64,000 nt of DNA from a virus (IMGVR_UViG_3300047368_000327:1-64000), one strand, 5' to 3'. Numbered from the stretch's first letter, positions 1,686 to 40,027 are shown. Translations and numbers: made by a program. Notes: generated from the sequence alone by a model not told the origin.

Positions 1686-4600
1686 ATGGCAGGAATAAGG
1701 GCAGATGTAAATCTTAATGTAAATACTTCTCAAGCGAAGAGAAGTATGGACAGGGCTGCGGCCGAGATAAATAAAGTCGTAAATAATATAGGCGGCAAAC
1801 AAATATCTTTTAATGTTAATGGTAGAAGTTTTACTCAGCCTCTTGGTCGAATCACTGCTTCGGCGAACGAATTCACTAAATCGCTGGAAGCTTCTAATGC
1901 GCGTGTTATAGCTTTTGGAGCTTCAGTAGGAATAATAAATGGAATATCTGATGCCTTTAAGAATTTAGTTCTTGAGACGGTAAAGTTTGAAAAAACATTG
2001 ATGGATATTAATGTGGTTCTGAACGCCTCTTCTCAATCTTTGCAGGAATTTGGTAGTGGATTATTTGATGTAGCTAAAAACACGGCTCAATCCTTTACTG
2101 TGGCATCTGAGGCTGCTTTAGAGTTTTCACGTCAAGGTTTAACCATGGAAGAGGTTCTAATCAGAACAAATGATGCGTTGACTTTGACTAGGTTGACCGG
2201 GCTAAAAGCTGCTGAAGCCGTATCTGGGTTAACGGCTGCGGTAAATGCATTCGGGCAGGCAGGCTTAAGTACTACAGATATTATTGATAAGCTAGCTGCA
2301 GTAGATGTTCAGTTTGCTGTAAGTTCAGAAGATTTAATTAATGCATTAGAGCGAACTGGAGCAGTCGCAATTGACGCAGGTGTTGAAATAGACAGCTTGA
2401 TTGGTTTGGTTACAGCCTTGCAGCAAACAACTGCTCGTGGTGGCGCAGTTATAGGTAATGGACTTAAAACTATATTTACCAGAATACAAAGGCCTCAGTC
2501 TATACAGCAATTAGAAGATATGGGTATAGCTGTAAAGAATTTATCTGGAGCAATATTGCCTGCCGATAAGATCATGCTAAATATGGCGAAGTCTTTTGAC
2601 TCGTTAACTCAGTCTCAGCAATCAAACATAGTTCAGTTTTCAGCTGGAATATTTCAGGCCAATGTATTTAGAGCAGCCTTGAAAGATTTATCGAAGGAAC
2701 AGAGTATTCAAGCTCAAGCTACCAAAATAGCTGGAGATGCTTCTGGGGATGCTGCCGTAAAAAACGAGATGCTCAACAAGACCATGTCTGCAATGGCGTC
2801 TCAAACTGTTTCATCAATTGAGGAGCTTGCTGAAACAATTGGTAAGTTAGCTTTTACCCCAGAAATAGGAGGGTTTTTATCTTTTATTCAGGATGGAGTA
2901 GAGGGCATAAAAAACATGCTTGGAGGTGGAGAAGAAGAGGGAGATGCTTTTGCCAAAGGCTTGGTTAAGGGTATAGGCAATGTTCTAACTGGACCAGCAG
3001 CAATAGCTTTCGGCGCAATTTTTATAAAACTTTTTGTAAATATATCTAAGTTCGCAAATAACTCACTGAAAGATGTGCTTGGAATAGTTAGTGAAAAGGA
3101 TAAAGTTAAGCAAATGGAAGAATCCATAACCAAGGCTTTATCTGATAATTTAAAACTGCAAGAGGGTTTAAATAATTTAGAAGGTGATCGAAAAGCTCAA
3201 GAGCAATTCATATTAGGTATAATCGAGAAACAAAATAAAGCAATGGCGGAGCAAGCAAATCTGGCTGCGCGTTTAGCTAAACCTTTGGTTAGGGCTGGGA
3301 TAAATCCAGATTTCACTTCTTCAGCGCCAGTTACCGCTTCATCCGGAGTACTGCCAGAGGCGGCCAAAAAAGAAAGAAAAGGAGCTTCTCGGGGTGGTTA
3401 TTCAGCAGGAGCCGTGGACTCAATGGATATTCCTGGGATGGGGGAAGTTGTTTATAATAAAGCTGAAAAAGTAAAGCAGTTCCCAGGGATGAGACAACCT
3501 GCAATTATGCCTCCCGAGCAAAGTAGGGCAGGAAGAACTTACAGAGATGCTTTTGCTGGTCAGCACGGGTTTGATCCGTATGCTAGTGGGGGATTAATTC
3601 CTAATTTTGCAAGAATGGAGGGTAGTAAATTAGTTTTAGATAAATCAAAGATGAAATTAATGGCAGATCCTCAACAAGCTAGGGTTGGTCAAAAGATAAG
3701 GAAAAGCTATGCAGAACTATCAAATAGTGGTCGACCTGTAAATATAGAAGCTGATATCAATAATCTTACTGTTGGCCGAGGCGGCAGTCATACAGCTAAA
3801 ATAAAAGACGTCCTTTCATTTTTAAGGAGCGAGGGAGTAGGAAGTATAGAAAGACCTTTTGATTTAGAAAAACTACCATTCAGGGGGAAAAAAGATGGTC
3901 AAGGAGCAGAAAAGGCTAGCCTTAAGGCTTTAGGTACTAAATATTTTTCAACTGGAGGTAAATCAGGAGACGAGACTTTTCCAGTCGATCTTGCTGGTTT
4001 AGATATGACTCCTTATGAAGTAAAGTCAGGGCAATGGAAGCTTCCGAATGTTTTATTGAAGAGTCTTCGTTTGTATACTGATGATGGATTATTGACTTTT
4101 GCTGAAAAGTATTTTGGGGCTGACCGAGAAATGATTCAGGAGGCCAGGGATGAGAAATTTAAAAAATCATCTGGTTTATTAAAAAAGAAAGGCTTTATAA
4201 AAGAAGGCTTAAATAGAAAAGAACAAGAAGATATAATAAATAGATTTCTTCTTCATGGTGGCTTAATTCCTAATTTTGCTGACGATAAGGTTAAGCCTGT
4301 TAAATCTATAGCTAATATTATTGACGGAGATAGTATAGAGGCCGATATTTTAGTTGGCACTCAAAGAGTAGATCACAGATTGCAAGGAGTAGATGCTGTA
4401 GAAAAAAATCAAGCATATGGGACTAGAGCTACAACTATAGCTAAAAACTTTTACAATGATGATAAAAAGGGAAGACTAAGACTTAGAGATCGTATAGTCC
4501 AAGATGGAAAAGCTGCATACGGAAGAGGGCTTTTTAAAGATCAAGATTTAGCAAGGACTTTAATTGAAAAAGGATATGGAGTTCCTGATGCTGGATACCT

Positions 4601-7600
4601 AAATAAATCAGAATACTTTAAATATCAAGAAATTGCTGAGAAAGCCAAAAGTAAGGGTGTTGGTATATGGAGAGACAAAACTAAAAAGACAGGAAAATAT
4701 AGGCATCCTAAAGCACAATTTTATTTACATCAGCAAGGTATAGTTCAAAAGGCTGACAAGTGGAAAGATGTTACTGTTTCAGACACTAGATTTTATAAAG
4801 AAGGGGTTAACTTATCAAATAAAAAATTTAAAGGTTATGCTGATGGCGGTAGAAAGTTTAGGCATTCTGGATTGATTCCCAATTTTATTGACACGAGAAC
4901 TCGTCAGCAAAAAATTCAAGACGTATTACGTGATCCAGCAAATAAAGGTATTAATTTCAAGGGTGGAGCCCTTGCTCCGATGTCAATTAAATCTAAGAAC
5001 ATGTTTCACCAAATGTTCTTGGAGAGTTATGTAAACAAAGGATTGGAAAGCGATTACGATATGCTCGTAAAGATGGGTTATGATCCTCAAGAAATAACTG
5101 CAGCAAGAAAACACAAGCAAAAGGGTGGAAAAGTTAATGTTTTAGCCAAAGGCCATGTGCCCAACTTTGCGGCTAGCTGGAAAAGATTTAAAAAATTTGA
5201 TAAAAATCAATACCTTAAAAGTTTAAAAAAGGGCAAAAGCAATAACGAGCAAGCCAAGATCGATGCATACGTAAAAGCCGCAGGAGGAGCCCAAAAGTTT
5301 CAAAGATTGAATGAGAAGTTTGGGTTAGATAAAGTTGACGACATATTTCAGATACTTGGATTTGCAAAAGGTTATGTCCCTAATTTTGCAAACCCTTTAG
5401 AAGACGCTATATCAAGAGAAAAAGCAGCAGGAGTTCCTCAAGAAAGAATCAGAGTAGAAAAAAGTAGTCAATTGAAGGGTCCGCAAAACCCTATGGGGCT
5501 AGCCGTAACTAATACGAGAGATGAACCGGCGGGAGTGCAACAAGGAATACGTCGCGCTAAAAGCATGGGGGTTAACCCAAAAGAGCATGGAGCTAACGTT
5601 GGCTTTGTGCCCAATTTTGAAAGCGATGATTCCAGGGTTCAGAGACTAGAAAAAGGCACCTCAGTAAAAGTAGGTTTCAAAGATCTTGAGAACTCCGTAA
5701 AAAAACTCTCATCATCTGTAGATAAAGCCGCTAAAAAAATCAGCGAAAACCAAAAGAAAATTGATAATAAAAGTGCCTCGTTAAATAAGGAAGAGCTACT
5801 AAAAAACGAGAATGATATTATCAAAAAAATGACGACGGCCAAGAAGGGGGAATTAAGAGGTCTTAAAGCGCAGTTTGATGCGAACTTAAAACTTAGGGAG
5901 TCTGTACATGAATCCACTAGAGCTATAGATGATTCTTCTGATGCAGAGGGTTCATCTCTTCAGAAGCTTTTCTACATGCAATCTGCGATCAGTTTGGTTA
6001 ATGGTCAATTTGAACAGCTATCAGAAACATCTTCTGGCATGACAAAAGTATTCGCAGATGCTATTCTTGGAGTTAGCAACCTTACCGCCGCATACATTCA
6101 GCAAAAAGAACTTGTTAGTGAGGGCATGAACATGCTTGGAACAAAGAGGAGCGAGTCTTTCTCTTTGGGACAAATTGTAGACCCAGAGGCAAGGCAATCG
6201 AGAAGGAGGGCAGCTGCTGCCGCCGAAGCTAGAGTTTCCGGGTCTAGGGTTGGTAGGGGTGGGGCACTTTCAGGCTTAATCGGGGGCGCAGGTAAACTCA
6301 GTAGAGCGTTTGGTAGATTTTTGCCACTAGTGGGGCAGGCATATACTTTGTTTACTGGATTAAATGAGGCTTTTAAGTTTTTTAATATTGGCGAAATGTT
6401 TGGATTGGAGAAAGGCTCAGGACTGATGGATTTACTGAGCACCACCTCTGAAAGGGCGTCAAAGAAGATAGAAAAACTAGGAGAAAGTACGGATAAATTG
6501 CAATCAGCATTTGAGAGCTTGCAGACTCAATCTCAGAATAATGAAAAAATAGATGAGCTGGAGATCTTGGGCGCAAGAAGAACCCAAAAACAAGAGCTAA
6601 AGTTGCAAGAGCTGAAGCTAAAGGGTTTTGATTTAGAGGTAAAATCCCAAGAAGCAATGTCTGCGTTATTGGACGAAAATATGGTTGGATCAAAAGTTGC
6701 TCAGAAATTTACTGAGGAATTAGCTAAGGGTACAACTGGCAATGAAGACTACTCTAGGATCATAAAAGAAGTTATAGCCGCTCAAAGGAAGCAAATGTCG
6801 TTTCTGCAGGGAACGAAATCTTTTGGAGAGTTGATTGATAAAAAACTCGATGTATTTTCCGCCGATAAAGGTGAGGAAAAATTTCTTAAATCTGCAGCAA
6901 AAATGAGAGGCTCTCAGCTTGGAATGGGGCTTTCTAGTGTTCTAGCTGGAGAAGAAAGCGCTGAAACGGAAGATAGACTTAAGATTTTAAATAGAAACAT
7001 TGCCGCCTTATCAAAGGAAACAAGCGTTGATTTAACAAGCATGGGCGATTTAAGCAGTTTAACCGATAGGCTTTCTTCTGGGCTAAAAGGTACTGAGAAT
7101 TTTGATTCAGAAATGATTGCGTCACAGATCAATATGCTGGGAAACAATATTGACGAAGCTATAGATAACACCTCAGGCTTACACAAGGTTGAATCAGAGG
7201 CTTTTGGTGGGGCAATGGAGAAAATAGTTTCGCAGCTTAGAATATTCAAAAAACAACTAGAGGGAGAGTCTGAAAGAAAGCAAGAAGTTCAGCTTAAAAA
7301 AGAATACATAGAGGCATACAAACAAGTAATCTTCGAGATTGGTGAATTCAGAAAAAACACGAAGCACGAGTCAAAGCTATCTCTCGAGGCATTAAAACAT
7401 TCAAGTTCCATACTTCTCTCTAGCGAGAAGCTATCATTGCAATACAATGCTATCGAAAAAGAAGCCGCTATATCTCTCGAGTTCGCAAGAAAGAGAAACG
7501 AAATAGACAGTAAATTTACAAACGATTTGCAGGCTGCAGAAATCGGAGTCATTGACAGCTTAAATAAAACTAGGGATACGTATTTAAACACTGAAGCTTT

Positions 7601-10600
7601 AGCCTCCATGTTTAATAAAAAAGGATCCGAGGCTGATAAGGCGGTAGGAGAGCTAAAGAAGAAAATTAATGAAGGAGTAAAAGCTACAGACTTTTCAGCG
7701 GTGCAAACCGAACTGGGCATAACGCTTGACAGCTCTGCAATGGATTCAATAAATAAGATATTTCAGGACGTAGCAGATGAGTCGAAAAATTTTAATAGCA
7801 ATATTCAAATAATGACAATGCTCGCAAAAAAACATGGCGAGATTCTTGACTCAAATAATTCTGCAGCCTTAATAACATTATTACATCAAAAAGGAATTGT
7901 TAATATAAGTGCAGAAGATTTAATTAAAGCAAAACAAATTTTAAAAGAAAAAGACAGAAAGCTTGAATCATTAAAACAGTCAGCAGACAATCAAAAAGCC
8001 ATAACTGACCAAAACGAAAAAGAAAGACTTATTTCGGAAAAAACCGTAAAGGGCGCTACCGCATTATTTAGGCATTTGGGAATGGATGTTGATGCTCAAG
8101 CCGCGATAACCAAGAACCGTGAAAACATTCTAAAAAGCATAAAAGGCGAAGCCATGCATATGGCCGTAACAAACAAGCAGGGCGAGGGTTTGGCGTCAGC
8201 AGTAGCTCAAAGTTTAGAGATGCAACAAAAAGGTCTCGAGTCGCAAAAGGAGAAAAATAGAAATGACGCGATTGCGGCCGTGTTATCTCTTAGACAATTA
8301 GAGGCTCAGACAGGTGCGCTCGCTGAATCTGAAGACAATAAAATTATTTTAGAAGCTAAAAATAAGAGCGAAATTTTAAATGCCGAAAGGGCTGCTCAAG
8401 AATCGCAATCAAGGTTGGAGTTTTTAAGTGGTCAGAAAAGCCGATCCGAGTTAGTAAAGCAACAGCTTGCTAAGGAAATTGCAGATTTAAGAAGTGGTAA
8501 TTTATTGGCGGCTGAAAAGAATAAACAACTATCAGAAGGTAAGGCTCTTACCGAACTAGTTGGAGAGCAAAGAGAGCAAGCGCTTCATTCCGCCAGGCTG
8601 GAAGCTTTAATTGCAGCGGAAAACGCAATACTTCTCACTGAGAAAGGCAAGCAGGCTAAACTAATCCAGCAGGCAAATGAATTACAGGAAGCCTCCAACA
8701 AGTTGACTGAATTTCAAAATGCAATAACTAAAGCAAAGGTAGATAAGAGGGCTTTGGCCGTTACTGCTGGGGCTGATATTGGAATTGAGAAAGCTAATGC
8801 GATTGCGTCAACAAGAACCGCAGGGATGAGGGCTCAAATAGATCCTAGTGCTGAAAATATGGCTGCTTATGCTGCTTCGCTTGAGGAGACTAATAAATTG
8901 CTTGGTAATGGTAGTAGAGCAATGGATAGGCTTAGATCAAAAATGGCAGAACTTAATGTTGGTGCAGAAAATCTTGGTGCTGATTTAGTGGATATTGGAA
9001 TTGATAATGCAAGAAGTGGGCTTAAGCAGTTGTTCAAGGATATTGGTAGCGGTTCAAAAAGCGCAAGTGAGGCATGGTCTGACTTTGGTCTAGGCCTTGC
9101 GGATCAATTGCTTGATCGAATGATGGACGCAAACATAGATAAGATTTTAAAAGACTTGACATTTGCGTTTACCGGAGAAGAAGGAAAATCTGACGAAGCT
9201 AAAATGACTGATGAGATGCGTCATTTTGGTGGGGTACTTGAAAAACTTAATACTCCATTGGGAGACTTAACTTCTGAAGTTAGAGCTCTTAAGGAGGTTA
9301 TGCAGAATCAAATTTCAAAAGAAGAGGGTGTTAATACGCCACCTGATGCAAAAATACCTGATGGTTCTACTTTTAAGCCAGGTCAAAGCCCTGGTGGAGC
9401 TTTTGCGGATGTACAGATACAATCACAAATAGCCAAAGACATACAGGGTGCTAAAACATTCGTGAAAACATTTAAAGACGCTTCGATAGATATATTTACG
9501 GACTTTGCGAGTAGGGCAATTGGTATTTTTAAGGGGTTAACTCAGTCTCAAGCGACAGAGGCAGGAACTGCTAAATCAAAGGAATATAGAACCACAGATC
9601 TTTACGAGGCTCAGGATGAATTAAGTAGTTTTAAACAAAATAATCTTTTTAAGCCTAAACCAAAACAAATAAATCAAATGAATTTTTCAGAGAAAGGTGA
9701 TTACGTTTTGGAACAACTGATGCCTATAAATGAAGAAATGCAGATGTCAGAGTATAAAGAGCAAAGATCAAACATCTTTAACCAGGAAGCGAAAAACAAT
9801 ATAATAGCTAAATCCATTGAAGAAAAAAAACTTAAAGAACTTGAAGAACGACTTGCCCAGGTGAAGAAAATAGAAAACCCAAGTCGTGGTGAACATCAGG
9901 AACTAAAAACACTTAAAACTGAAATAAATGAAAGCAAAGGAAAAATTAAAGATCTTGGAAAAAAAATAAAGCCAGTTATAGAAAATCTCGAAGGATTAGA
10001 TGAAGAATTTAATCAAGCAAAAAGCGCACTTCAAGAATTAACAAGTAAAGTAGGCGAGATAAATAAGAACTTGCGCCTTCAGGAGATCAATATTCCAGAA
10101 TTGCAAACCTCAACAGATCGGCTGATGCAAAATTCAAATCCAGAAGCTTATAAGATTCTAACCGGAGGAATGTTGTCAGGCGGCAAAATACAGCACTTCG
10201 CAAAGGGCGGATTTGTAGACGGGCCAGCAGGTGTAGATAAAGTTCCTGCAATGTTAACGGCGGGAGAATATGTCGTACCAAAAGAACAAGCAAAGCAATT
10301 CAAGCATAGCGGCGGAGAGATACAGAATTTTTCAATAGGTGGAATGGCCAAAGAGCTAAACAACCCAAACACTGAAAGCAGGCCAATCAGGGGAGCTCAA
10401 GGGGTGACACAGTTACTGGTCATGAACGAAGTCGCTCGCGGGGTGGCTAAATATTTAGAAAAGCCAAAAGATGACGGGCCTCCGACATTTGATAAAAATA
10501 AATTCAACAATTTAGACCTAAGGTCAGATGTAAACATTAAGCGTGGAGACCCCAGGTTGAGTGCAAGATTTTTAGCTAAAGATCCAGTGATGCAGGAATA

Positions 10601-11654
10601 CAGAGATTACCTTCTGGAGAAAGCCGCTTACGATGTAGAAAAGAAAAACCAAAAAGTCGACAAAAAAATGCAAACAATCGGCTCTATAGTTTCATTTATG
10701 AGCACCTTTGCGATGGCCGAAATGACAAGTGCTATGAAACCTTATGTTGAGAAAGCGGTTGGATGGGCAAAAGACAAGGCTACCAATTTAACCAAGGGCC
10801 ACATGGGCTTAGGTGAGCATTCTAAAGCTTTTAAGCAAGCAAGAAAGCAGAATATAGACATGGATTACAGCGACCTTAAGGGCGCTGAGTCTACTGGGTA
10901 TTTAATATCTAATGATAATAAAGCTTACGCTATGTCTAGAAAGGGAACTTGGAATCTTGATCCGTCAAAAACTTTAAGCCACAGAAGAGCTCTACAAGAA
11001 AATATAAAGAAGCAATCAACAAAGCGTCAGTCTGGCGGATCAGTACCTGCAATGCTTACCGCAGGAGAAGGTTTTGTTCCAGCAGCAATAGCGAAAAGAA
11101 TTGGCTACGATAATTTAAACAGAATGAATACCACTGGAGATCTCCCGATCATTCAGGGCAAGGGCGGTATAGATAATGTTGGACCAGTGGGTTTAACCGA
11201 GGGAGACTTTATAATCAAGAAGAGCTCAACAGACAAACTTCTTAGAGAAAATCCAAACATGATGAGATTTGCATTGCAAAACCCAGAAGGATTTAAGAGG
11301 GGTGAGCGTGGATACTATGAAGGTGGGGTTGTCGGCGACGCACCAGCGGTACCAACTTCTTCTGTACCGAGAGCAGCGCCAACAAACCGAATTAAAAACT
11401 CTAATCCGGTTGAAATGTTCAACCAATCTTTTAATCAAAAAAGCGAGCCAGCTGTTGCGACCCAGCAAAAAAGTGAAACAACAAACAATATAAACGTTAA
11501 CGTAACCATAGATCAAACCGGCAAAGAGAGTGTGTCAACTGATGGTTCAGCTAGCTCTTACGAAGAAGAACAACAACTTTCACTAAAAATAAAAAGCGCA
11601 GTAATGGATGTTATTAGGGAAGAGAAAAGGATAGGCGGAGAGCTTAGCTCATGA
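1686..11654 (+). CDS. Giant tail tape-measure protein with embedded nuclease domains
   Basis: 3322 aa. Residues about 1-420 match the TP901-type tape-measure core (PhageMin_Tail): small-residue-rich helices with motifs such as GLTAAVNAFGQAGLS and RGGAVIGNGLKTIFTRIQ. Residues about 643-857 resemble a PD-(D/E)XK nuclease (E742, D768, E778-x-K780). Residues about 872-1005 are a staphylococcal nuclease (TNase) domain with the catalytic set D882, R898, D903, E906 and R947. These segments are bounded by GGLIPNFA-type motifs at 635, 858, 1061, 1154, 1227 and 1306. A long coiled-coil region (about 1320-2800) follows. The C-terminal part carries repeated VPAMLTAGE segments common in tape measures. An AAGGA ribosome site precedes the ATG. 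It sets tail length and is expected to travel through the tail into the host on injection. The nuclease function is predicted from motifs only. Confidence 0.93.
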   Translation: MAGIRADVNLNVNTSQAKRSMDRAAAEINKVVNNIGGKQISFNVNGRSFTQPLGRITASANEFTKSLEASNARVIAFGASVGIINGISDAFKNLVLETVKFEKTLMDINVVLNASSQSLQEFGSGLFDVAKNTAQSFTVASEAALEFSRQGLTMEEVLIRTNDALTLTRLTGLKAAEAVSGLTAAVNAFGQAGLSTTDIIDKLAAVDVQFAVSSEDLINALERTGAVAIDAGVEIDSLIGLVTALQQTTARGGAVIGNGLKTIFTRIQRPQSIQQLEDMGIAVKNLSGAILPADKIMLNMAKSFDSLTQSQQSNIVQFSAGIFQANVFRAALKDLSKEQSIQAQATKIAGDASGDAAVKNEMLNKTMSAMASQTVSSIEELAETIGKLAFTPEIGGFLSFIQDGVEGIKNMLGGGEEEGDAFAKGLVKGIGNVLTGPAAIAFGAIFIKLFVNISKFANNSLKDVLGIVSEKDKVKQMEESITKALSDNLKLQEGLNNLEGDRKAQEQFILGIIEKQNKAMAEQANLAARLAKPLVRAGINPDFTSSAPVTASSGVLPEAAKKERKGASRGGYSAGAVDSMDIPGMGEVVYNKAEKVKQFPGMRQPAIMPPEQSRAGRTYRDAFAGQHGFDPYASGGLIPNFARMEGSKLVLDKSKMKLMADPQQARVGQKIRKSYAELSNSGRPVNIEADINNLTVGRGGSHTAKIKDVLSFLRSEGVGSIERPFDLEKLPFRGKKDGQGAEKASLKALGTKYFSTGGKSGDETFPVDLAGLDMTPYEVKSGQWKLPNVLLKSLRLYTDDGLLTFAEKYFGADREMIQEARDEKFKKSSGLLKKKGFIKEGLNRKEQEDIINRFLLHGGLIPNFADDKVKPVKSIANIIDGDSIEADILVGTQRVDHRLQGVDAVEKNQAYGTRATTIAKNFYNDDKKGRLRLRDRIVQDGKAAYGRGLFKDQDLARTLIEKGYGVPDAGYLNKSEYFKYQEIAEKAKSKGVGIWRDKTKKTGKYRHPKAQFYLHQQGIVQKADKWKDVTVSDTRFYKEGVNLSNKKFKGYADGGRKFRHSGLIPNFIDTRTRQQKIQDVLRDPANKGINFKGGALAPMSIKSKNMFHQMFLESYVNKGLESDYDMLVKMGYDPQEITAARKHKQKGGKVNVLAKGHVPNFAASWKRFKKFDKNQYLKSLKKGKSNNEQAKIDAYVKAAGGAQKFQRLNEKFGLDKVDDIFQILGFAKGYVPNFANPLEDAISREKAAGVPQERIRVEKSSQLKGPQNPMGLAVTNTRDEPAGVQQGIRRAKSMGVNPKEHGANVGFVPNFESDDSRVQRLEKGTSVKVGFKDLENSVKKLSSSVDKAAKKISENQKKIDNKSASLNKEELLKNENDIIKKMTTAKKGELRGLKAQFDANLKLRESVHESTRAIDDSSDAEGSSLQKLFYMQSAISLVNGQFEQLSETSSGMTKVFADAILGVSNLTAAYIQQKELVSEGMNMLGTKRSESFSLGQIVDPEARQSRRRAAAAAEARVSGSRVGRGGALSGLIGGAGKLSRAFGRFLPLVGQAYTLFTGLNEAFKFFNIGEMFGLEKGSGLMDLLSTTSERASKKIEKLGESTDKLQSAFESLQTQSQNNEKIDELEILGARRTQKQELKLQELKLKGFDLEVKSQEAMSALLDENMVGSKVAQKFTEELAKGTTGNEDYSRIIKEVIAAQRKQMSFLQGTKSFGELIDKKLDVFSADKGEEKFLKSAAKMRGSQLGMGLSSVLAGEESAETEDRLKILNRNIAALSKETSVDLTSMGDLSSLTDRLSSGLKGTENFDSEMIASQINMLGNNIDEAIDNTSGLHKVESEAFGGAMEKIVSQLRIFKKQLEGESERKQEVQLKKEYIEAYKQVIFEIGEFRKNTKHESKLSLEALKHSSSILLSSEKLSLQYNAIEKEAAISLEFARKRNEIDSKFTNDLQAAEIGVIDSLNKTRDTYLNTEALASMFNKKGSEADKAVGELKKKINEGVKATDFSAVQTELGITLDSSAMDSINKIFQDVADESKNFNSNIQIMTMLAKKHGEILDSNNSAALITLLHQKGIVNISAEDLIKAKQILKEKDRKLESLKQSADNQKAITDQNEKERLISEKTVKGATALFRHLGMDVDAQAAITKNRENILKSIKGEAMHMAVTNKQGEGLASAVAQSLEMQQKGLESQKEKNRNDAIAAVLSLRQLEAQTGALAESEDNKIILEAKNKSEILNAERAAQESQSRLEFLSGQKSRSELVKQQLAKEIADLRSGNLLAAEKNKQLSEGKALTELVGEQREQALHSARLEALIAAENAILLTEKGKQAKLIQQANELQEASNKLTEFQNAITKAKVDKRALAVTAGADIGIEKANAIASTRTAGMRAQIDPSAENMAAYAASLEETNKLLGNGSRAMDRLRSKMAELNVGAENLGADLVDIGIDNARSGLKQLFKDIGSGSKSASEAWSDFGLGLADQLLDRMMDANIDKILKDLTFAFTGEEGKSDEAKMTDEMRHFGGVLEKLNTPLGDLTSEVRALKEVMQNQISKEEGVNTPPDAKIPDGSTFKPGQSPGGAFADVQIQSQIAKDIQGAKTFVKTFKDASIDIFTDFASRAIGIFKGLTQSQATEAGTAKSKEYRTTDLYEAQDELSSFKQNNLFKPKPKQINQMNFSEKGDYVLEQLMPINEEMQMSEYKEQRSNIFNQEAKNNIIAKSIEEKKLKELEERLAQVKKIENPSRGEHQELKTLKTEINESKGKIKDLGKKIKPVIENLEGLDEEFNQAKSALQELTSKVGEINKNLRLQEINIPELQTSTDRLMQNSNPEAYKILTGGMLSGGKIQHFAKGGFVDGPAGVDKVPAMLTAGEYVVPKEQAKQFKHSGGEIQNFSIGGMAKELNNPNTESRPIRGAQGVTQLLVMNEVARGVAKYLEKPKDDGPPTFDKNKFNNLDLRSDVNIKRGDPRLSARFLAKDPVMQEYRDYLLEKAAYDVEKKNQKVDKKMQTIGSIVSFMSTFAMAEMTSAMKPYVEKAVGWAKDKATNLTKGHMGLGEHSKAFKQARKQNIDMDYSDLKGAESTGYLISNDNKAYAMSRKGTWNLDPSKTLSHRRALQENIKKQSTKRQSGGSVPAMLTAGEGFVPAAIAKRIGYDNLNRMNTTGDLPIIQGKGGIDNVGPVGLTEGDFIIKKSSTDKLLRENPNMMRFALQNPEGFKRGERGYYEGGVVGDAPAVPTSSVPRAAPTNRIKNSNPVEMFNQSFNQKSEPAVATQQKSETTNNINVNVTIDQTGKESVSTDGSASSYEEEQQLSLKIKSAVMDVIREEKRIGGELSS

Positions 11655-12679: not shown

Positions 12680-13875
12680 GCAAGCCTTTTTACAGATATG
12701 AAGATGTGCCTCTATTGATGGCCTCTGAAGGTGAAGAGCCCGTAATGGTATTCGCAAATAGAGCTGGACTTTCTGCAAGCCAACCAATTCAAGCTAAAAA
12801 ATTCGTAGAAGATTATAATATATCTTTCGCTCTTCAAACTGGAGATATACATTTTACTGGAGCATATGAGTCAGGCTTTCTCATGGGTCCAACAAATGGG
12901 CCAGGAGTTAGGATACCAGAATCGGTTGAAAATATATTGAGCGGAGCAAAGATAGCTTATCCTGGAGGTCAGGCGCTATATTTAGCTGAAGATTTGTCGG
13001 CGGGAGATTACCATATAAAAGTGAGATCAACAGGCGAGACGACACTAAGATATGAGGAGGATATAGAGTATGGAGAAGTTGAGGTTTTAAGAAACTATGC
13101 AGCAGGCGGCATCGTTAGGGGTTCGCTCGACGTTACTTATTATATGAATACTGGAAACCTTCATACTTTTGCCGATTTAACAGGGCTGCTAGACCCTAAT
13201 ATTTATCCACAGGTAAATGAAGCTAAAATCACTGGGTCATTCGGAGATTATATATTTGAAGATGCTTACCTAAGAGATCTTTCTTTTTCGGCAGAACCTT
13301 TTCAGATAATACAAGCAAATTTAAGCTTGGATATATATGGAAGGATGTTATATCAGTCAGGGCTAGCAGATTCAATCATTAGCGACTATGGATGCATAAA
13401 AGAAAACCAATTAAGTGTGCCTCATGCAATTAATACTAAGGTAGAAGGCGCATCAGATGTAGGAATAGAGTACCCCTTGAACTTTACATACAAAATAACT
13501 TCAAGAAGAAACCCAGAAGTTCCAGTGCCATTAAGCGGAAAAATGGACGATGATGGTGAGCTGCCGGTAAGAGTCACAAAAGAAGATATAGACATTAGTA
13601 TAAGAATAGAGGGCGAAAAGCTTGATCCATTTTTAAAAATATCAGGACAAAGAGCTGACGTTACAGTAAGTTTATCAGATATAGGTTTCAGCAAAGAATT
13701 TACTGACAATAACCAAGGGCTAATGAAGGAGTTCAGATTGGCTGGAAGTTTGGTTCACCCGGATTTACCATCTCAAGAATTAAAAGACTACGGAGTAGTT
13801 GAAGAAGATAATCTTAGCGTATCGGAGGGCGGATTTCTGCAGGGCTCCGCTACCATAAAACAGTCTTACAGATAA
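12676..13875 (+). CDS. Tail tube-like / distal tail protein
   Basis: 399 aa, overlapping its upstream neighbour by ATGA and its downstream neighbour by TAATG. This points to translational coupling. It contains the same style of beta motif (YLRDLSFSAEPFQIIQANLS) as the two other tube-like proteins here, plus a second copy-like region near residues 310-345 (ITGSFGDY and KEFRLAGSL strands). No catalytic motifs, signal peptide or membrane segment are visible. It is probably a virion protein of the tail tip or tube, from context and the paralogous motif. Confidence 0.6.
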   Translation: MSKPFYRYEDVPLLMASEGEEPVMVFANRAGLSASQPIQAKKFVEDYNISFALQTGDIHFTGAYESGFLMGPTNGPGVRIPESVENILSGAKIAYPGGQALYLAEDLSAGDYHIKVRSTGETTLRYEEDIEYGEVEVLRNYAAGGIVRGSLDVTYYMNTGNLHTFADLTGLLDPNIYPQVNEAKITGSFGDYIFEDAYLRDLSFSAEPFQIIQANLSLDIYGRMLYQSGLADSIISDYGCIKENQLSVPHAINTKVEGASDVGIEYPLNFTYKITSRRNPEVPVPLSGKMDDDGELPVRVTKEDIDISIRIEGEKLDPFLKISGQRADVTVSLSDIGFSKEFTDNNQGLMKEFRLAGSLVHPDLPSQELKDYGVVEEDNLSVSEGGFLQGSATIKQSYR

Positions 13876-16800
13876 TGGACATACCTATATCAGGAATTGG
13901 GGCTAATTCTGTACAATGGTGGCAGGAGAGTGGTGCGAGCAATTTAGTTTTATTAAATGAATTAAGCGGCACCAGGAACCCACCCGAACAGGTTTTCGAA
14001 TCGGACATAGAAAATTACAAACCAAGGGAGCAGACGACTCAAACCGAAGAAGGAATACAGTACTTCATAGAAACAGGAAACAATGTAACACTTTTAGATA
14101 AATATCCATATGTAGACTATAGCCCTGATACCTACTGGAAAGAGAATGATATTTTATCGATAGAAGATTTAACATTTTCTAAAAATAAAAATTTTATTAT
14201 AAATAATAATGCTGAATTATTAATTAGTGAATTTTTTAAACTTAATTCTAGTTTAGGTTATTCTATTAATGTATTAGTAAAGAAGGATACTGAGTCTACT
14301 AGGTTGATAGATGAATATAAAACATATCTAGCTGAAAATCAAAATGGATCTGTTAATATTGGTGATTCGATAGGCGTTGGAATAGGTATAAAGTTTTACG
14401 ATGAAAATGATGTAGAGCTTTTTGCGCCGGACTTAAGGGATACTCACAGATTAATGGCTGGAAGTGAGTTGAATCATACTGAGTATTATAATGTTAATAT
14501 AGATATAGCTGACACTTCAATCCCAGAAGATGCGGTTTCTGGAAGAATAATTTTATTGGTTTACGGATTAAGTTCTGGGGGCTTTGTTTTTAAGAAACCT
14601 TCGGTAAGAAATTTAAGCAAGTTCTTTTACTGCACTAAGGATCACCAGTCTTCTTATTGGAATAGCCCCAATAGTAAAGATGGATTAAAATACTGGACGC
14701 AAGATTTTGTGTGGAGGCCGTCTTATGGATCAAAGTCGGATTTTGTAGCAATTAATGAAGAGCTCAAAATGGGAGAAGGCAAGGACTATGTCACTAACAT
14801 GGCTATCAATGCTCTGCCGATGGAGCTTAATGTAAACTTCAATAATAGAACAGATAAAGAAGCTAAAGCTATTATACATTTTTTACAAGAAAAGTCCTTT
14901 GCATACGATTCGATTTTTAGCCTCGACTATAAGGGAGATAGGCTTTTGTCTAGCGAAATAGGATCCTTTAATTTTAAATATACTTATCCGTATAAAGATG
15001 ATTTAAAGTATACCTGCACCCAATTCAATCACTCAATTGTTTATAGAAATAATAATAATATAAATGCTAAGTTTATATGCAATACCGAGAGTACTCTTTC
15101 TAGCGTGGAAAGTAACGCTGGTTACAATAAAAGGATTGACGCACTTATACCTATATTTATAGATGAAACCACTGAGTTTAAAAAAGGTGAACAGATAACG
15201 CTGAATACCTTTACGCTTGAAGAGGGTGATGGAACCACCACTGTTGACACAAAAAAGATAAAAAGAATAAAACGTTATCCGGAAGACACCCTTCAGGAGG
15301 TCACGGGGGGAATTATAACTTTCACAGAAGATGTCGGACTGGAGGAAGAAGATTGTGTTTTTATAAAAATCGTAGATCCAAAAAATTCTAGATACAACGT
15401 GGGCAAAACGAAGATAAAGAAAAAGATATCCGAAACAGAGTATGCTTTTTGGCCTATACTAGAAGAAGGCTCGGAGGAGGAGGTCGCTAATTACAGGGCA
15501 ACTTCATCCGCTGGAGAAAAGACGTCAATTCGTTGGTTTGACCCAATAGGCGGAGAAAGAATTGAACTCAGGAATAATGAGGTTCAGTCGACTGATCCAG
15601 CTGAGCAATTATGGAGGCCTGTGAGCGAAGACCAAATAATTCCAAGAGAGGAAGTTTATGAAAGTGAAGATGGCGCTCAGTATTTCGAGGAAAGTGGAGT
15701 AGATTTTATTACAACCAGGGGAGAGGAGTTTGTATTTGGGGGCAATATAACGATGAAGCACATGCAGGTTTGCCCCGAGGATTGCTCATATAGTAAAGTT
15801 TTACTTCCCGAAAATGTATCAACTATACCTTCTGTTAGCGTTGACCCAAGCACTGGACTAGAGAGAAAAAGACAGGTTTATTTAAAGAATTACAGAAGAA
15901 TGCAAGTGGACTCAGATATAAATGAAGACACCCTGTCTGTTACTTTTACGCCGCTAGAAAATTTCACTCTAGAGGCGAAGGATGATTTCTGGTTACTAAT
16001 ATCCGCAGTACAAGGAAGAAGTAGCATATATTTAAAAGACGCTAATGAAACTCCAAAGTTTCCATGGTTAGAAGTTAGGAATTTTGACCACAAGCCGAGT
16101 CTCGTTTTTGGCCTAGAGCAAACGCCTGATCACATACAAACAAGCTTCACTAAAACTTATAATAAGCGATATAAAAGAGGTATAAATTCAAATTTATCAA
16201 CATTTAATTTAACGTTCGAAAAAAGAAGCGACGAAGAAGCAGCTGAGATACTGCAGTTTCTGGAAAGCCATTTGGGATACAAGAAGTTTAGGTTTCAAAT
16301 GCCTAGGCCTTACCTAAAGGATGGAAGCTACCTAACTTCCCAAACTAAACCGTACATGTCTACATTTTATTGTCCTAGCTGGGGCCACGATGTTATTTAT
16401 AAAAATAACCATACGATATCGGTTACGTTTATAGAATCTGCAACTTCGATAGAAGAAGATTTAAGGTCAGTATTTGGGATAGGACAAGAAGAGGATAAGC
16501 CTTGTTATGGCGCTGAAATATATGACCCAATAACAACTCATGAACTTTGCACTTTTTCTTCTCAATTAATGGCCGCTAAGGGCGTAGGTTTTGATCTATC
16601 TAAGGAGGCAATAACTACCAAGTCTAAGGCTGTCGATTTAGTTTTCATAGTTGATACTACTGGAAGTATGACTAATTTATACATGGATGTAGAGGGAGAG
16701 ATAATATCAAAATATAGACTAACCATAGATGTAGTTCTAAAAATGATAACAGCTTACGATAAGTATGTGATGCCTGGAACTAAGTCATTTAATGGTATTT

Positions 16801-18932
16801 ATGATGCCCCTGAGCTTTCTTACGGTTCTATTAGTGGGGATGACACGGTCCCTCCTTGGCCTGCGGATAACAAAGTAATGGATAGCTTAATATCAAAGCT
16901 TTATGATCCACTAAAAGAACTAAGAGATTCTCTTGAGAATAATGGATATAATTTAGAAAACTTAGATAGGTTTAAAATAAAAATAGATGAGAAAAGAGTG
17001 AATTTAGGCTTCATCTTAATGGGCGACACTAGACAAATAATACAAGACGTTTCAGATTTGCCAAATTCATTCGATAAAATACAGTCTTATAAAAGTGTTG
17101 ATGTAAAAAATACCAACTGGGACCTAGGGGAAGATTCACCTAGGGCAGTGAGTCAGGCGTTGGCGCAGTTTTACAATAGTCCAAGAGCTGAGCATGTAAC
17201 AGATAGGATTGTTGTTATGCTTAGTGATGGGGTTTTTACTAGTGCAGACGCAACCCAGCCAGGGTCCGACTATAATTCGTACTATAGTCAATACACTCTA
17301 GATATGTGCGCTCAACTAAGAAAGGGTGGAGAGTTAGCTAAGAGAAGGCCTAGCGATGAAGTGTTAAAAAAATACGGATTTCAGTCCCAGAACCCATACA
17401 AGAAGCTTGAAAGCTATAAAGGTAAACCTAGAGATGGAGGAGTCTCTGAATACAATAACCCGGACAATGGAGCGGATAATCCCGATTGGTACGAGGAAGA
17501 AATGCCTACAGTTTTTATGTTTGCTCAAGTTGGTAACCCTCAGTATCTTTCAGTATATGCGCCTAACTATGTATATGATTATGATCAGCCAGCCCCATAT
17601 CTAGATCCGCCAGCAACAAAACCTCAATTCTTCTTTCCGATAACTCAAAAGGATGACCCGAGTAAAGAGGTGACGAGAATGATGGATTTAATAAAAGTAG
17701 TGGAAATGATAACTAGCGATAGCGGTTATCAAAATTTATTTTCTATAGTACTATATAATTGCGGGCCACATAACGTTAGACTCTTGAATACCTTAGTGAA
17801 TATTAAAGGTCAAAAATCTCCAATGAAGTGGACTACAGAAATTTTAAAACAAGGAATAGTCGACGGAGGAAGCAATCAAGACTTAAAGTATACAGCTCAA
17901 GGAGAAGGTATAGATTCTATAGTTAAAGGTTATGGTGGGCAATATTTTGGGGACCCAGATAATCAAGATTTGTTTTCAGATGAAAAGAAGGCTTCCAATA
18001 TATTATGGCAAACATTTAATACCAAATACGAAGTGTCCAGAGAGTCAGTTATTTATGATATAAATGGAGGTTGGAATTTGAATTCGGCCGAAACAGCAGG
18101 AGTTAATAATATAGGGGTTGCATCCAAAGGCATGCCTGTTAGGGTTTTTAGGTCAGACTCAGGACTCGAAATAACAGACTATAATATTGGTTCAGCTAAT
18201 CTATCCAATAATTATCAAGGAAATTATTCTCACTTGCCGTTAATAAAACCGGGAGAAAAGCTTGATTTATTTTTTGGAATAAAGGTTGGTAAGTTAAGCG
18301 ATTTTTCTGAAAGCGTTCAACTCTTGATAAACTCTGATGATGGCACAGCTAAGGAAATGGATTGCTATGCGAATTACGAGTTCGATATAAACGTGCCGTC
18401 TAGCAAGAACACTATAGGAGACGAGCCAGTTAAGGACCCGACAAGTCCGGTTGGATGTAAGAGTGTTTGGATGGATAACGATTACGTAATTAGACATCCA
18501 GTTTATGGCGATATAAAAATAGAATCAAATCCAAGGTTACCAGAAAAAACATGGCGATATAACCAAATTGTATTAGAAAATTTTGAAGATTACCCCGGAG
18601 ATGGGTTTTGCTTTCAGATGAGCAACATTGTATCGCCGCAAACATATACGTTTTCAGAGCCAATCATGAATCCAATTTTAGTTGTATATAGCTTAGGGCG
18701 GCCAAACTTAAACGTCACAATAGAAACCGATAAAGAATTTGCAGATTATAGCGGTGGAGCTGTCCCTACGAGGGGTGCGGCGCCATTAAAAATATTATCA
18801 GACAATAAATTTAGTGGTAGGGAGGGTTTTGGGATGTTAATTTTTCCTGGAGAGCATACAAGTATAACATTAACCCCATACGTTGCAGAGCACTATTATG
18901 ATATCGTATGGGGAATACAAAACTGCCCCTAA
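13875..18932 (+). CDS. Large minor tail protein with two gpM-like domains and a von Willebrand A domain
   Basis: 1685 aa. Residues about 273-406 and 740-860 each resemble the lambda minor tail protein M fold: a strand of the type LNVNFNNRTDKEAKAIIHFL, then an aromatic-rich segment ending in an N-x-x-x-x-x-F-I-E/N strand. Residues about 919-1360 are a von Willebrand factor A domain. It has a hydrophobic strand followed by the metal-binding DTTGSM motif (D927, T929, S931) and a later VVMLSDGVF strand. A WW-x-E ... QYF module occurs at residues about 11-75 and 549-620 and again in the next gene. The domain fusion suggests a distal-tail structural protein with an adhesion-type, metal-dependent module facing the host. 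Residues about 90-250 look like a carbohydrate-binding jelly roll, which is my inference. Confidence 0.8.
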   Translation: MDIPISGIGANSVQWWQESGASNLVLLNELSGTRNPPEQVFESDIENYKPREQTTQTEEGIQYFIETGNNVTLLDKYPYVDYSPDTYWKENDILSIEDLTFSKNKNFIINNNAELLISEFFKLNSSLGYSINVLVKKDTESTRLIDEYKTYLAENQNGSVNIGDSIGVGIGIKFYDENDVELFAPDLRDTHRLMAGSELNHTEYYNVNIDIADTSIPEDAVSGRIILLVYGLSSGGFVFKKPSVRNLSKFFYCTKDHQSSYWNSPNSKDGLKYWTQDFVWRPSYGSKSDFVAINEELKMGEGKDYVTNMAINALPMELNVNFNNRTDKEAKAIIHFLQEKSFAYDSIFSLDYKGDRLLSSEIGSFNFKYTYPYKDDLKYTCTQFNHSIVYRNNNNINAKFICNTESTLSSVESNAGYNKRIDALIPIFIDETTEFKKGEQITLNTFTLEEGDGTTTVDTKKIKRIKRYPEDTLQEVTGGIITFTEDVGLEEEDCVFIKIVDPKNSRYNVGKTKIKKKISETEYAFWPILEEGSEEEVANYRATSSAGEKTSIRWFDPIGGERIELRNNEVQSTDPAEQLWRPVSEDQIIPREEVYESEDGAQYFEESGVDFITTRGEEFVFGGNITMKHMQVCPEDCSYSKVLLPENVSTIPSVSVDPSTGLERKRQVYLKNYRRMQVDSDINEDTLSVTFTPLENFTLEAKDDFWLLISAVQGRSSIYLKDANETPKFPWLEVRNFDHKPSLVFGLEQTPDHIQTSFTKTYNKRYKRGINSNLSTFNLTFEKRSDEEAAEILQFLESHLGYKKFRFQMPRPYLKDGSYLTSQTKPYMSTFYCPSWGHDVIYKNNHTISVTFIESATSIEEDLRSVFGIGQEEDKPCYGAEIYDPITTHELCTFSSQLMAAKGVGFDLSKEAITTKSKAVDLVFIVDTTGSMTNLYMDVEGEIISKYRLTIDVVLKMITAYDKYVMPGTKSFNGIYDAPELSYGSISGDDTVPPWPADNKVMDSLISKLYDPLKELRDSLENNGYNLENLDRFKIKIDEKRVNLGFILMGDTRQIIQDVSDLPNSFDKIQSYKSVDVKNTNWDLGEDSPRAVSQALAQFYNSPRAEHVTDRIVVMLSDGVFTSADATQPGSDYNSYYSQYTLDMCAQLRKGGELAKRRPSDEVLKKYGFQSQNPYKKLESYKGKPRDGGVSEYNNPDNGADNPDWYEEEMPTVFMFAQVGNPQYLSVYAPNYVYDYDQPAPYLDPPATKPQFFFPITQKDDPSKEVTRMMDLIKVVEMITSDSGYQNLFSIVLYNCGPHNVRLLNTLVNIKGQKSPMKWTTEILKQGIVDGGSNQDLKYTAQGEGIDSIVKGYGGQYFGDPDNQDLFSDEKKASNILWQTFNTKYEVSRESVIYDINGGWNLNSAETAGVNNIGVASKGMPVRVFRSDSGLEITDYNIGSANLSNNYQGNYSHLPLIKPGEKLDLFFGIKVGKLSDFSESVQLLINSDDGTAKEMDCYANYEFDINVPSSKNTIGDEPVKDPTSPVGCKSVWMDNDYVIRHPVYGDIKIESNPRLPEKTWRYNQIVLENFEDYPGDGFCFQMSNIVSPQTYTFSEPIMNPILVVYSLGRPNLNVTIETDKEFADYSGGAVPTRGAAPLKILSDNKFSGREGFGMLIFPGEHTSITLTPYVAEHYYDIVWGIQNCP

Positions 18933-21519: not shown

Positions 21520-22554
21520 ATGAAAAATACAGAAAAAAACATTAAATCTTTATTTGAATTAGATCCTTCTGCAATAATATGTTTGTATAAAATTAATCTT
21601 CGAGAGAAAGGTCAATATTTATTTCATGCTGGAGAAAATGGATATAAAAATAAGCTAGTATTTGATGGGCAGGAGTATGATTTTTTCCCAATCAGGGCTG
21701 AAGGTTTTGAGATGCATGGAGATGGTAGGTTGCCTAGACCTAAATTAACTTTTACTAATCATCAGGGGGTAATTTCATTGCGCCTTAACTACTTTGACGA
21801 CTTTATAAATTACAAAGTAACAAGAATAAAAACATTCGTTAAATATTTAGACTCAGTTAATTTTCCTAATAATGTAAACCCACATGCTGAGCCTGATCCG
21901 GAAGCAGCCTTCGGGGAAGACGTTTTCTTTGTTAATCAAAAAATAAAAGAAGACGATAATATTGTGCAGTTCGAGTTGGTTTCGCTTATGGAACTCCAGA
22001 ATGCAAAAGTGCCAGCTAGAACTGTTTACTCTAATAATTGCCCATGGCAGTATAGGGGGGATATAGGGTGCGGGTATAAAGGCAAGCCAATATCTGATAC
22101 AAAAAATAAGAGATTCGTGCAAAGCGGTTACAATGAAAACATGGTTGGGAGTGATACTTATTTTAGTGGAGAATTTAATAATCAAGAGTTTGCTAAGCTC
22201 GAAGAAGGAGGAGTCTATCCAGACTGGGAAATAACTAGCACATACTCTAGAGGTGATGCTGTTAAGCTAGTCCCATTTGACCACGACTCTTCACTGAATC
22301 CCATAGATATATATGTATGCCTTAATGACGGAGTTAGGTCGAACCCGGTTTACGATACAGAGAACTGGGTGCTAGATGATTGCGATAGAACTTTATGTGG
22401 TTGTAGGCTTAGATTTTCTGACGCAGCTACAGGAGCAGGAGGAGGAAAAAGAATTAGTACAAATCCAACAAGCGAGGATTCATTCTGGACAGAGTCTGAG
22501 GAAGGAATACCTTTTGGAGGTTTTCCTGGTGTCGACCCTTATGAATTTAAGTAG
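21520..22554 (+). CDS. Lambda gpL-like minor tail protein (probable iron-sulfur tail-tip protein)
   Basis: 344 aa. The N-terminal half has the gpL pattern LFHAGENGYKNKLVFDGQEY. This is followed by the cysteine signature NNCPWQYRGDIGCGY (C174, C184) and a distal CDRTLCGC cluster (C288, C293, C295). In lambda, gpL carries an Fe-S cluster and forms part of the tail tip below the tube. The order gpM-like, gpL-like, gpK-like, gpI/J-like here matches lambda and supports the call. An insertion of about 90 residues lies between the two Cys groups, so the protein is longer than lambda gpL (about 230 aa). Confidence 0.85.
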   Translation: MKNTEKNIKSLFELDPSAIICLYKINLREKGQYLFHAGENGYKNKLVFDGQEYDFFPIRAEGFEMHGDGRLPRPKLTFTNHQGVISLRLNYFDDFINYKVTRIKTFVKYLDSVNFPNNVNPHAEPDPEAAFGEDVFFVNQKIKEDDNIVQFELVSLMELQNAKVPARTVYSNNCPWQYRGDIGCGYKGKPISDTKNKRFVQSGYNENMVGSDTYFSGEFNNQEFAKLEEGGVYPDWEITSTYSRGDAVKLVPFDHDSSLNPIDIYVCLNDGVRSNPVYDTENWVLDDCDRTLCGCRLRFSDAATGAGGGKRISTNPTSEDSFWTESEEGIPFGGFPGVDPYEFK

Positions 22555-23268
22555 ATGTTTGAGGCGCAAATAGTTAACCATGCAGAGAGTAACCCTGATG
22601 AAGAAGTATGTGGTTTTATTTTATTAAATAAAGATTTAACTATTTCTGTAGAAAGAGCTGTTAATGAACACTTGGAGCCAAGAGACTGCTTTACTATATC
22701 TCCTTCTAAGTTTTTGAAGTATAGTATTCAGAAAAACATTATAGGAATATACCACTCTCACCCAAGGAGTAATGAGAATCCATCGAAGCCTGACATTGCC
22801 ATGTCTGAAGAAATGGGTATACCTTATTTAATTTATAGTTTAATTACTAAAAAATTTTATTTATATTATCCTGAAAGTTATAATACTAATATGCTTACTG
22901 GTAGACCTTATATAAAAGGATTTTTTGAATGTACTTGTATGTTTAAAGATTATTTTAAAAAAGAATTAAATATAAACATATCTAAATGGAATAAAAACTA
23001 CTGGCTTCCAAAAGAAGATAAAGAAGCAAATAAACTATTATTAAAAATATTAAATAAAAACTTAATAGAGATAAAAGATAAAAAATTAAATAAACATGAT
23101 GTATTAGTGTTTGAGGTTAAGAAGGGTAGAAGATTTCATGTTGGTATATATACTGGTGATGATTATTTTATCCATCAAGCTGAGGGGGTTTTATCGCGCC
23201 GAGAATTACTTGATGAACGCTGGCAATCCAAAATAAAAGAAGTGTACAGGCATGCTTCGTTAGTGTAA
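22555..23268 (+). CDS. Lambda gpK-like tail peptidoglycan hydrolase/assembly protein (JAMM + NlpC/P60)
   Basis: 237 aa, starting directly after the gpL stop. The N-terminal JAMM (Mov34/MPN) metalloprotease domain shows a perfect HxHx7SxxD motif (H67, H69, S77, D80) with an upstream glutamate (E16/E17). The C-terminal NlpC/P60 domain has the likely catalytic cysteine C127 in ECTCMFKDYF, and H195 in FHVGIY followed by an FIHQAEG strand. Lambda gpK has the same two-domain order and acts in tail-tip assembly. The NlpC part probably cuts peptidoglycan during entry. The stretch from about 22820 to 23110 is very AT-rich compared with its neighbours. Confidence 0.88.
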   Translation: MFEAQIVNHAESNPDEEVCGFILLNKDLTISVERAVNEHLEPRDCFTISPSKFLKYSIQKNIIGIYHSHPRSNENPSKPDIAMSEEMGIPYLIYSLITKKFYLYYPESYNTNMLTGRPYIKGFFECTCMFKDYFKKELNINISKWNKNYWLPKEDKEANKLLLKILNKNLIEIKDKKLNKHDVLVFEVKKGRRFHVGIYTGDDYFIHQAEGVLSRRELLDERWQSKIKEVYRHASLV

Positions 23269-36853: not shown

Positions 36854-36855
36854 AA

Positions 36856-37242: not shown

Positions 37243-37250
37243 AGTGTTAG

Positions 37251-37279
37251 ATTATACCAGATATATAAACTAATGTCAA
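37251..37279 (-). promoter_or_regulatory. Perfect sigma70 promoter (TTGACA-17-TATAAT)
   Basis: Read on the minus strand, TTGACA (37279-37274), a 17-bp spacer and TATAAT (37256-37251) match the bacterial sigma70 consensus at all 12 positions. It faces the gene starting at 37242. The expected start point is near 37244, so the message would be nearly leaderless unless translation starts at the internal ATG at 37236. Confidence 0.8.
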
Positions 37280-38836: not shown

Positions 38837-38855
38837 ATATTTTTATATTTTTTGA

Positions 38856-39841: not shown

Positions 39842-39859
39842 AGTTTTTGAAAAAAAATC

Positions 39860-39889: not shown

Positions 39890-39913
39890 GTAAAATCGAA
39901 CAAAAAAAACATA

Positions 39914-39999: not shown

Positions 40000-40007
40000 G
40001 AAGCTTC

Positions 40008-40022: not shown

Positions 40023-40027
40023 TAAGC

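What the first reader, a model, noticed from the sequence alone, without database searches (positions are those of the whole stretch)
3612..4700. Tape measure carries a staphylococcal-nuclease domain and a PD-(D/E)XK-like nuclease segment
Inside the 3322-aa tape-measure frame, residues about 872-1005 contain the full TNase catalytic set (D882, R898, D903, E906, R947). Residues about 643-857 carry E742, D768 and E778-x-K780 of the PD-(D/E)XK type. Both are bounded by the same G-x-[IV]-P-N-F motif. Since tape measures travel through the tail into the host, these could be injected nucleases that degrade host DNA or a competitor, or open a path for phage DNA. I do not know a described system of this form.
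Basis: partly seen in the sequence, partly recalled or inferred. Interest (0 to 1): 0.88.

Follow-up and report, generated by a model that had tools for sequence, protein, structure and literature searches.

The report
Nuclease cassettes inside phage tape measure
The protein that sets the length of this phage's tail also carries, between copies of a short repeated motif, an exchangeable row of protein modules that includes a real staphylococcal-type DNA-cutting domain and a second probable one, so the tail may deliver ready-made enzymes into the bacterium it infects.

Summary
The tape measure protein (TMP, window 1686-11654, 3322 aa) contains a staphylococcal-nuclease (SNase) module above the Pfam cut-off with all five catalytic residues. 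Those residues are also kept in four other, partly very divergent, TMPs. The segment before it carries a PD-(D/E)XK-type fingerprint. D768, E778 and K780 are invariant in 21 homologous modules, and the predicted secondary-structure order fits. However, Foldseek found no matching fold, so that assignment rests on motif and topology only.

The larger finding is the context. Six G-x-[IV]-P-N-F motifs bound five modules here. Across 80 related TMPs they bound 287 modules in about 50 sequence clusters. Modules are swapped as cassettes. Two TMP genes that differ by 10 mismatches in about 8.9 kb carry unrelated cassettes at one slot, and the window's own SNase slot switches to 99% identity with a relative exactly at the motif's first base. 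Cargo length varies 2.6-fold while the rest of the TMP stays constant.

Best reading: exchangeable effector cargo carried inside a siphovirus tape measure and delivered with the genome. The nucleases probably cut host or competitor DNA early in infection. Delivery and activity are inferred, not shown. The closest known things are polyvalent phage proteins and the tapemeasure-related nuclease effector Tme.

The parts
1686..11654 (+). Tape measure protein, 3322 aa, single frame
   Evidence: Pfam and PHROG tape-measure matches
2073..2633 (+). PhageMin_Tail domain (aa 130-316)
   Evidence: PF10145 E=6.8e-22
2970..3026 (+). Hydrophobic segment aa 429-447, at a similar place in all six TMPs examined; possible membrane segment upstream of the cargo
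   Evidence: hydropathy scan
3591..3608 (+). G-x-[IV]-P-N-F motif 1 (GLIPNF)
3609..4256 (+). Module 1 (aa 642-857): PD-(D/E)XK-like, with E742, D768, E778-x-K780
   Evidence: 21-member alignment with invariant D768/E778/K780; AF2 model pLDDT 92, pTM 0.87; no Foldseek match
4260..4277 (+). Motif 2 (GLIPNF); left edge of DNA similarity to the L001 SNase cassette
4278..4868 (+). Module 2 (aa 865-1061): staphylococcal-nuclease cassette (Pfam match 4377-4676)
4869..4886 (+). Motif 3 (GLIPNF); DNA identity to L003 resumes at 99% at its first base
4887..5150 (+). Module 3 (aa 1068-1155), unknown, found in 12 TMPs
   Evidence: cluster 2
5151..5168 (+). Motif 4 (GHVPNF)
5169..5369 (+). Module 4 (aa 1162-1228), unknown, found in 3 TMPs
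   Evidence: cluster 20
5370..5387 (+). Motif 5 (GYVPNF)
5388..5600 (+). Module 5 (aa 1235-1305), the commonest module ('VTNTRDEP'), usually last in the array
   Evidence: cluster 0 in 67 TMPs; used as bait
5601..5618 (+). Motif 6 (GFVPNF), end of the array

Best explanation
A siphovirus-type tape measure doubles as a carrier of exchangeable effector modules. After a conserved N-terminal part of about 635 aa that ends beyond a hydrophobic segment, the protein carries an array of modules separated by G-x-[IV]-P-N-F motifs. In this phage the array holds a PD-(D/E)XK-like nuclease, a catalytically intact staphylococcal nuclease and three small modules of unknown function. Shown by sequence: the modules, their conservation and purifying selection, and cassette exchange at the motifs. 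Inferred: the modules travel in the tail as part of the TMP, are ejected with it at the start of infection, refold on the far side of the tail, and the nucleases cut DNA there. The most likely target is the host chromosome (early shut-off and supply of nucleotides) or DNA of a resident or competing element. The motif probably acts at the protein level, as a hinge, processing site or anchor between modules.
For: SNase: above the Pfam cut-off; all five catalytic residues invariant in four TMP modules that are 38-81% identical; a fifth module in L100; dN/dS 0.25. Module 1: D-E-x-K invariant in 21 modules down to about 20% identity; dN/dS 0.21; helix(E742)-strand-strand(D768)-strand(E778,K780)-helix order in a pLDDT 92 model. 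A second first-slot family (33 modules) shows G-x-x-[FY]-E, D, [ED]-x-K conservation. A strict form of that signature occurs in 52 of 76 TMPs against 3% in controls. Cassettes: 287 modules in 50 clusters. L024 and L026 differ by 6 mismatches in 3936 bp before and 4 in 5010 bp after an unrelated cassette. 83 of 144 homology breakpoints lie within 9 nt of a motif against 13.3 expected. Ruler independence: six close TMPs have 2646-2748 aa outside the cargo but 676-1761 aa inside. Lambda-type TMPs reach the inner membrane and contact the cytoplasmic part of a host nuclease during injection (PMC13190303). The phage encodes ribonucleotide reductase, which fits reuse of host nucleotides.
Against: No virion proteomics and no activity data. 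Folded domains of this size may not fit in a tail-tube lumen, so they would have to be unfolded or extended in the tail. Module 1 has no Foldseek match although its model is confident. The two first-slot families do not match each other by hhalign. Most modules have no Pfam match, so 'effector' is not shown for them. A DNA-cutting domain made in the producing cell could harm the phage; no inhibitor was identified.
Confidence: 0.57

Rival explanations
1. The nuclease modules act in the envelope or against competing DNA rather than on the host chromosome. They stay near the entry site after ejection and destroy DNA of superinfecting phages or residual DNA, a superinfection-exclusion or competition role.
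For: TMPs are found at the inner membrane during injection (PMC13190303). A hydrophobic segment lies just before the array. Staphylococcal nuclease itself is calcium-dependent, which favours extracytoplasmic activity (my own knowledge, not tested).
Against: The cutting site and metal need of these modules are unknown; a nuclease at the entry site would also threaten the phage's own DNA.
Confidence: 0.17
2. The modules work in the producing cell or in the virion, for example on the end of the packaged DNA or during tail assembly, and are not effectors.
For: A PD-(D/E)XK-like signature is present in most TMPs of the family (52 of 76), which would suit a core function.
Against: Modules are swapped wholesale between near-identical phages, the SNase is found in only five TMPs, and the other cargo types differ widely. 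A core function would not be so exchangeable.
Confidence: 0.1
3. The nucleases are selfish, homing-type enzymes that cut the DNA of array-less TMP genes and so spread the cassettes.
For: Homing nuclease genes do interrupt TMP genes in other phages (PMC10448857). Cassette edges coincide with a repeated motif.
Against: The array is one open frame without an intron. Synonymous codons in the motif follow the background, so there is no conserved DNA target. Most exchanged cassettes carry no recognisable nuclease, and the SNase family is not a homing class.
Confidence: 0.06
4. Module 1 is not a nuclease: the D...E-x-K pattern belongs to another fold with a different function, and only the SNase is a DNA-cutting domain.
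For: High-confidence model without a Foldseek match in the PDB or BFVD; no Pfam, PHROG or PDB profile match.
Against: Invariant D and E-x-K on neighbouring strands with a preceding helix glutamate is the PD-(D/E)XK order; one homologue weakly hits a CDI toxin with a restriction-endonuclease-like fold, E=0.03.
Confidence: 0.2

Closest known systems
Polyvalent proteins of phages and conjugative elements (Iyer et al. 2017, PMC5512222)
   Same: Large virion-associated or transferred polypeptides that string together unrelated enzymatic domains predicted to act early after entry.
   Different: Those typically carry a metallopeptidase hub domain for release and are not described there as tape measures. 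Here the carrier is the TMP, modules are separated by a fixed G-x-[IV]-P-N-F motif, and no peptidase was recognised in the arrays scanned.
Tme, the tapemeasure-related endonuclease effector of Streptomyces davawensis contractile injection systems (PMC11126660)
   Same: Tape-measure homology plus a nuclease domain with tested activity.
   Different: It belongs to a bacterial contractile injection system, has one C-terminal EndA-type nuclease, and has no motif-bounded array. Here it is a phage TMP with an internal multi-cassette array and SNase / PD-(D/E)XK-like domains.
Sle1-type reconfigurable effectors (PMC13277306)
   Same: Tape-measure-related carriers with exchangeable functional domains; a swapped domain changed the phenotype.
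   Different: C-terminal single domains in actinobacterial injection systems, not phage virions; no motif array.
Staphylococcal nuclease (thermonuclease, PF00565)
   Same: Fold family and all five catalytic residues.
   Different: Embedded in a tape measure, with about 65 further residues up to the next motif.
TMPs with peptidoglycan-cutting domains (for example SPbeta YomI)
   Same: Enzymatic domain built into a TMP; YomI matches the N-terminal part of this TMP at about 29% identity.
   Different: Those enzymes open the cell wall; the domains here act on DNA.

Membership tests
Staphylococcal nuclease (PF00565) | Profile match above the curated cut-off | tested here: met
   28.0 bits against 21; 29.1 bits
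Staphylococcal nuclease (PF00565) | Catalytic Asp, Arg, Asp, Glu, Arg | tested here: met
   D882, R898, D903, E906, R947; invariant in four modules
Staphylococcal nuclease (PF00565) | Metal-dependent DNA/RNA cleavage | not testable with these tools
   needs purified protein
PD-(D/E)XK nuclease superfamily | Conserved D ... [D/E]-x-K with a preceding acidic residue in a helix | tested here: met
   D768, E778, K780 invariant in 21 modules; E742 lies in a predicted helix, conserved in the nearer homologues but not placed in one column across all 21
PD-(D/E)XK nuclease superfamily | Core fold similar to solved members | tested here: inconclusive
   helix-strand-strand-strand-helix order fits but Foldseek found no match; the strand that usually follows the second core helix is not predicted
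Tape measure protein | Sequence match to known TMPs and place among tail genes | tested here: met
   minor tail proteins at 21520-23268
Polyvalent proteins | Several unrelated domains in one virion or transferred protein | tested here: met
   presence in the virion inferred from TMP identity
Polyvalent proteins | Characteristic hub domains such as the zincin-like metallopeptidase | tested here: not met
   no Pfam family above cut-off other than PhageMin_Tail and SNase in P0001, and none in 14 other arrays
Tme/Sle1-type tapemeasure-related effectors | Part of a contractile injection system, functional domain at the C-terminus | tested here: not met
   phage genome record, array at aa 636-1311 of 3322
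Homing endonucleases | Intron or intein context or a conserved DNA target | tested here: not met
   single open frame; motif codons follow background use

The most novel reading that the evidence does not exclude
A large family of phages uses the tape measure as a cassette-loaded delivery chassis. A standard linker motif lets enzymatic modules, with a PD-(D/E)XK-like nuclease in most arrays and other cassettes such as SNase added, be swapped between phages by recombination and injected with the genome: a phage counterpart of polymorphic toxin or secretion-effector systems.
Probability: 0.5. Interest if true: 0.92.

Novelty: new variant of a known kind. Interest (0 to 1): 0.8.

Why it matters
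Tape measures are usually treated as rulers and membrane channels. An array of exchangeable enzymes inside them would mean that tails deliver proteins as well as DNA, and would give a large set of predicted early-infection effectors that can be cut out at defined borders and tested one by one. It also supplies a clean case of recent cassette exchange within a TMP gene; a 2023 survey of phage protein mosaicism (PMC10684548) reported mosaic signals in TMPs but could not confirm any genuine recent case.

Tried and rejected
(1) Structural confirmation of module 1: Foldseek against the PDB and BFVD gave nothing below E=0.001; a model of the other first-slot family (pLDDT 80) also gave nothing. (2) Profile searches of module 1 against the PDB and Pfam, and of the other first-slot family: nothing significant. 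(3) hhalign of the two first-slot families: no match. (4) Close relatives in named phages: none for the nuclease region or for module 5; only the N-terminal TMP part matches. (5) Homing-nuclease idea: rejected as the main reading because the motif is conserved as protein, not as DNA. (6) A joint alignment of the whole array for folding misplaced two SNase rows and was not used. (7) HAD-like and ART-like labels for other modules are my reading of motifs; one alignment (A7) was poor and a PDB profile search of the ART-like set was empty, so they are not claimed. (8) Literature searches for a tape measure with staphylococcal nuclease or with the PNF motif found no such description in the open library.

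Full report
What was checked. The ORF at 1686-11654 is one frame of 3322 aa. It is a tape measure protein: PhageMin_Tail at aa 130-316 with E=6.8e-22, eight PHROG tape-measure families, best E=2.7e-41, and about 24-30% identity to named TMPs such as SPbeta YomI within aa 25-468. Lambda-type minor tail proteins follow at 21520-23268, so a siphovirus is likely (inference).

The staphylococcal nuclease is real. PF00565 matches aa 898-996 above its curated cut-off (28.0 against 21 bits). A four-member profile matches thermonuclease structures at 7.6e-6. A fifth module, in L100, keeps the same set, with YNRGL in place of YGRGL. dN/dS between the window and L001 is 0.25. The record holds no other SNase. 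In the four TMPs where the preceding slot can be seen (window, L001, L022, L100) the SNase follows directly after a module of the PD-(D/E)XK-like family.

The PD-(D/E)XK-like segment is probable, not proven. In 21 homologous modules, down to about 20% identity, the invariant residues include D768, E778, K780 and a following K-S. A model at pLDDT 92 and pTM 0.87 puts E742 in a helix, D768 at the start of one strand and E778-x-K780 at the end of the next, followed by a helix. That is the order of the PD-(D/E)XK active site. But Foldseek found no similar structure, and no profile search hit a known nuclease beyond one weak match to a restriction-endonuclease-like CDI toxin (E=0.03). Most of the smaller TMPs of the family carry, in the first large slot, a different segment with G-x-x-[FY]-E, D and [ED]-x-K conserved in 33 sequences. 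A strict form of that signature occurs in 52 of 76 TMPs, against 3% in shuffled and downstream control segments. The two families do not align by hhalign, so common origin is not shown.

The motif and the array. Six G-x-[IVL]-P-[NH]-F motifs lie between aa 636 and 1311, against 0.003 expected in shuffled sequence. They bound five modules. Using the last module as bait, 192 IMG/VR stretches encode a relative (80 kept) and four genome contigs do. From 80 distinct TMPs, 287 motif-bounded modules fall into 50 clusters, with 2 to 11 motifs per TMP. The array starts at aa 609 +/- 43 in complete TMPs, beyond a hydrophobic segment (aa 429-447 in the window) found at a similar place in all six TMPs examined.

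Cassette exchange. Against L003 the window is about 99% identical in DNA from base 4869, the first base of motif 3, while the cassette before it is unrelated. Against L001 similarity starts inside motif 2 (base 4267) at the SNase module (83% DNA identity), although the module before it is very divergent. L024 and L026 have 6 mismatches in 3936 bp before and 4 in 5010 bp after one slot, in which unrelated cassettes of about 340 and 270 aa lie. Of 144 homology edges inside arrays, 83 lie within 9 nt of a motif against 13.3 expected; these pairs are not independent. Synonymous codons in 373 motifs follow background use, so the motif is kept as protein, not as a DNA site.

Not part of the ruler. 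In six close TMPs (window, L003, L005, L011, L012, L013) the length outside the array is 2646-2748 aa while the array varies from 676 to 1761 aa. If the array counted towards tail length, tails of closely related phages would differ greatly. This is an inference that electron microscopy can test.

How it probably works. Shown: the modules, their conservation and their exchange. Inferred: the TMP, with its array, is packed in the tail, is ejected ahead of or with the DNA, and places the modules at or across the inner membrane. Published work shows lambda-type TMPs at the inner membrane and in contact with a cytoplasmic nuclease of the host (PMC13190303), and a tapemeasure-related protein that carries an active nuclease in a contractile injection system (PMC11126660). 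The nucleases would then cut host or competitor DNA early. The phage's own ribonucleotide reductase genes fit a life style that reuses nucleotides, but this is weak evidence.

Comparison with the known. The idea of multidomain early effectors in virions is known (polyvalent proteins, PMC5512222). TMP-derived effectors with exchangeable domains are known in bacterial injection systems (PMC13277306). What I did not find described (open-access library only) is a phage tape measure with an internal array of motif-bounded, exchangeable modules including SNase. I therefore file it as a new variant of a known kind.

Limits. No organism or host is known; the records are metagenomic, including the four MAG contigs. 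Most modules have no recognised family. Nothing here tests activity, delivery or the role of the motif.

Noticed in passing
L024 and L026, TMP genes: Two TMP genes 99.9% identical on both sides of one slot carry unrelated cassettes, a very recent exchange; useful natural pair for experiments.
   Followed up: yes
L005:14066-14503 and L012:7338-7775: Module with FYDFDETLA and IDDAPEN, which reads like a HAD-type phosphatase; no profile search was made for it.
   Followed up: partly
L008:14408-15697, L012:7794-8414, L031:8369-9025: Modules with LYRG ... S[FY]ST and one with VFHGTTMEGARGIIESGG, reminiscent of ADP-ribosyltransferase-like toxins; profile search of the first set against the PDB was empty.
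   Followed up: partly
L011:7008-7760 and L021:6170-6940: Module with motifs reminiscent of protein-kinase-like or phosphotransferase folds (VVYKLPRP, DVHSGNF); unverified.
   Followed up: no
window 10179-10331: Two GG-x-I-Q-[HN]-F stretches (aa 2832 and 2876) near the TMP C-terminus resemble the array motif, next to an AMLTAGEYVV-type repeat.
   Followed up: no
window 13875-18932: 1685-aa protein downstream of the TMP contains a von Willebrand A-like stretch (VDLVFIVDTTGSM), unusual among tail genes.
   Followed up: no
window 34371-53683: Glycosyltransferase-like and nucleotide-sugar genes near the tail genes, followed by ribonucleotide reductase subunits at 47840-50317 and 52670-53683.
   Followed up: partly
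L095, L096 (MAG contigs titled Halobacteriovorax): The array-bearing TMP family also occurs in contigs binned to a Halobacteriovorax MAG; binning not checked, host unproven.
   Followed up: no
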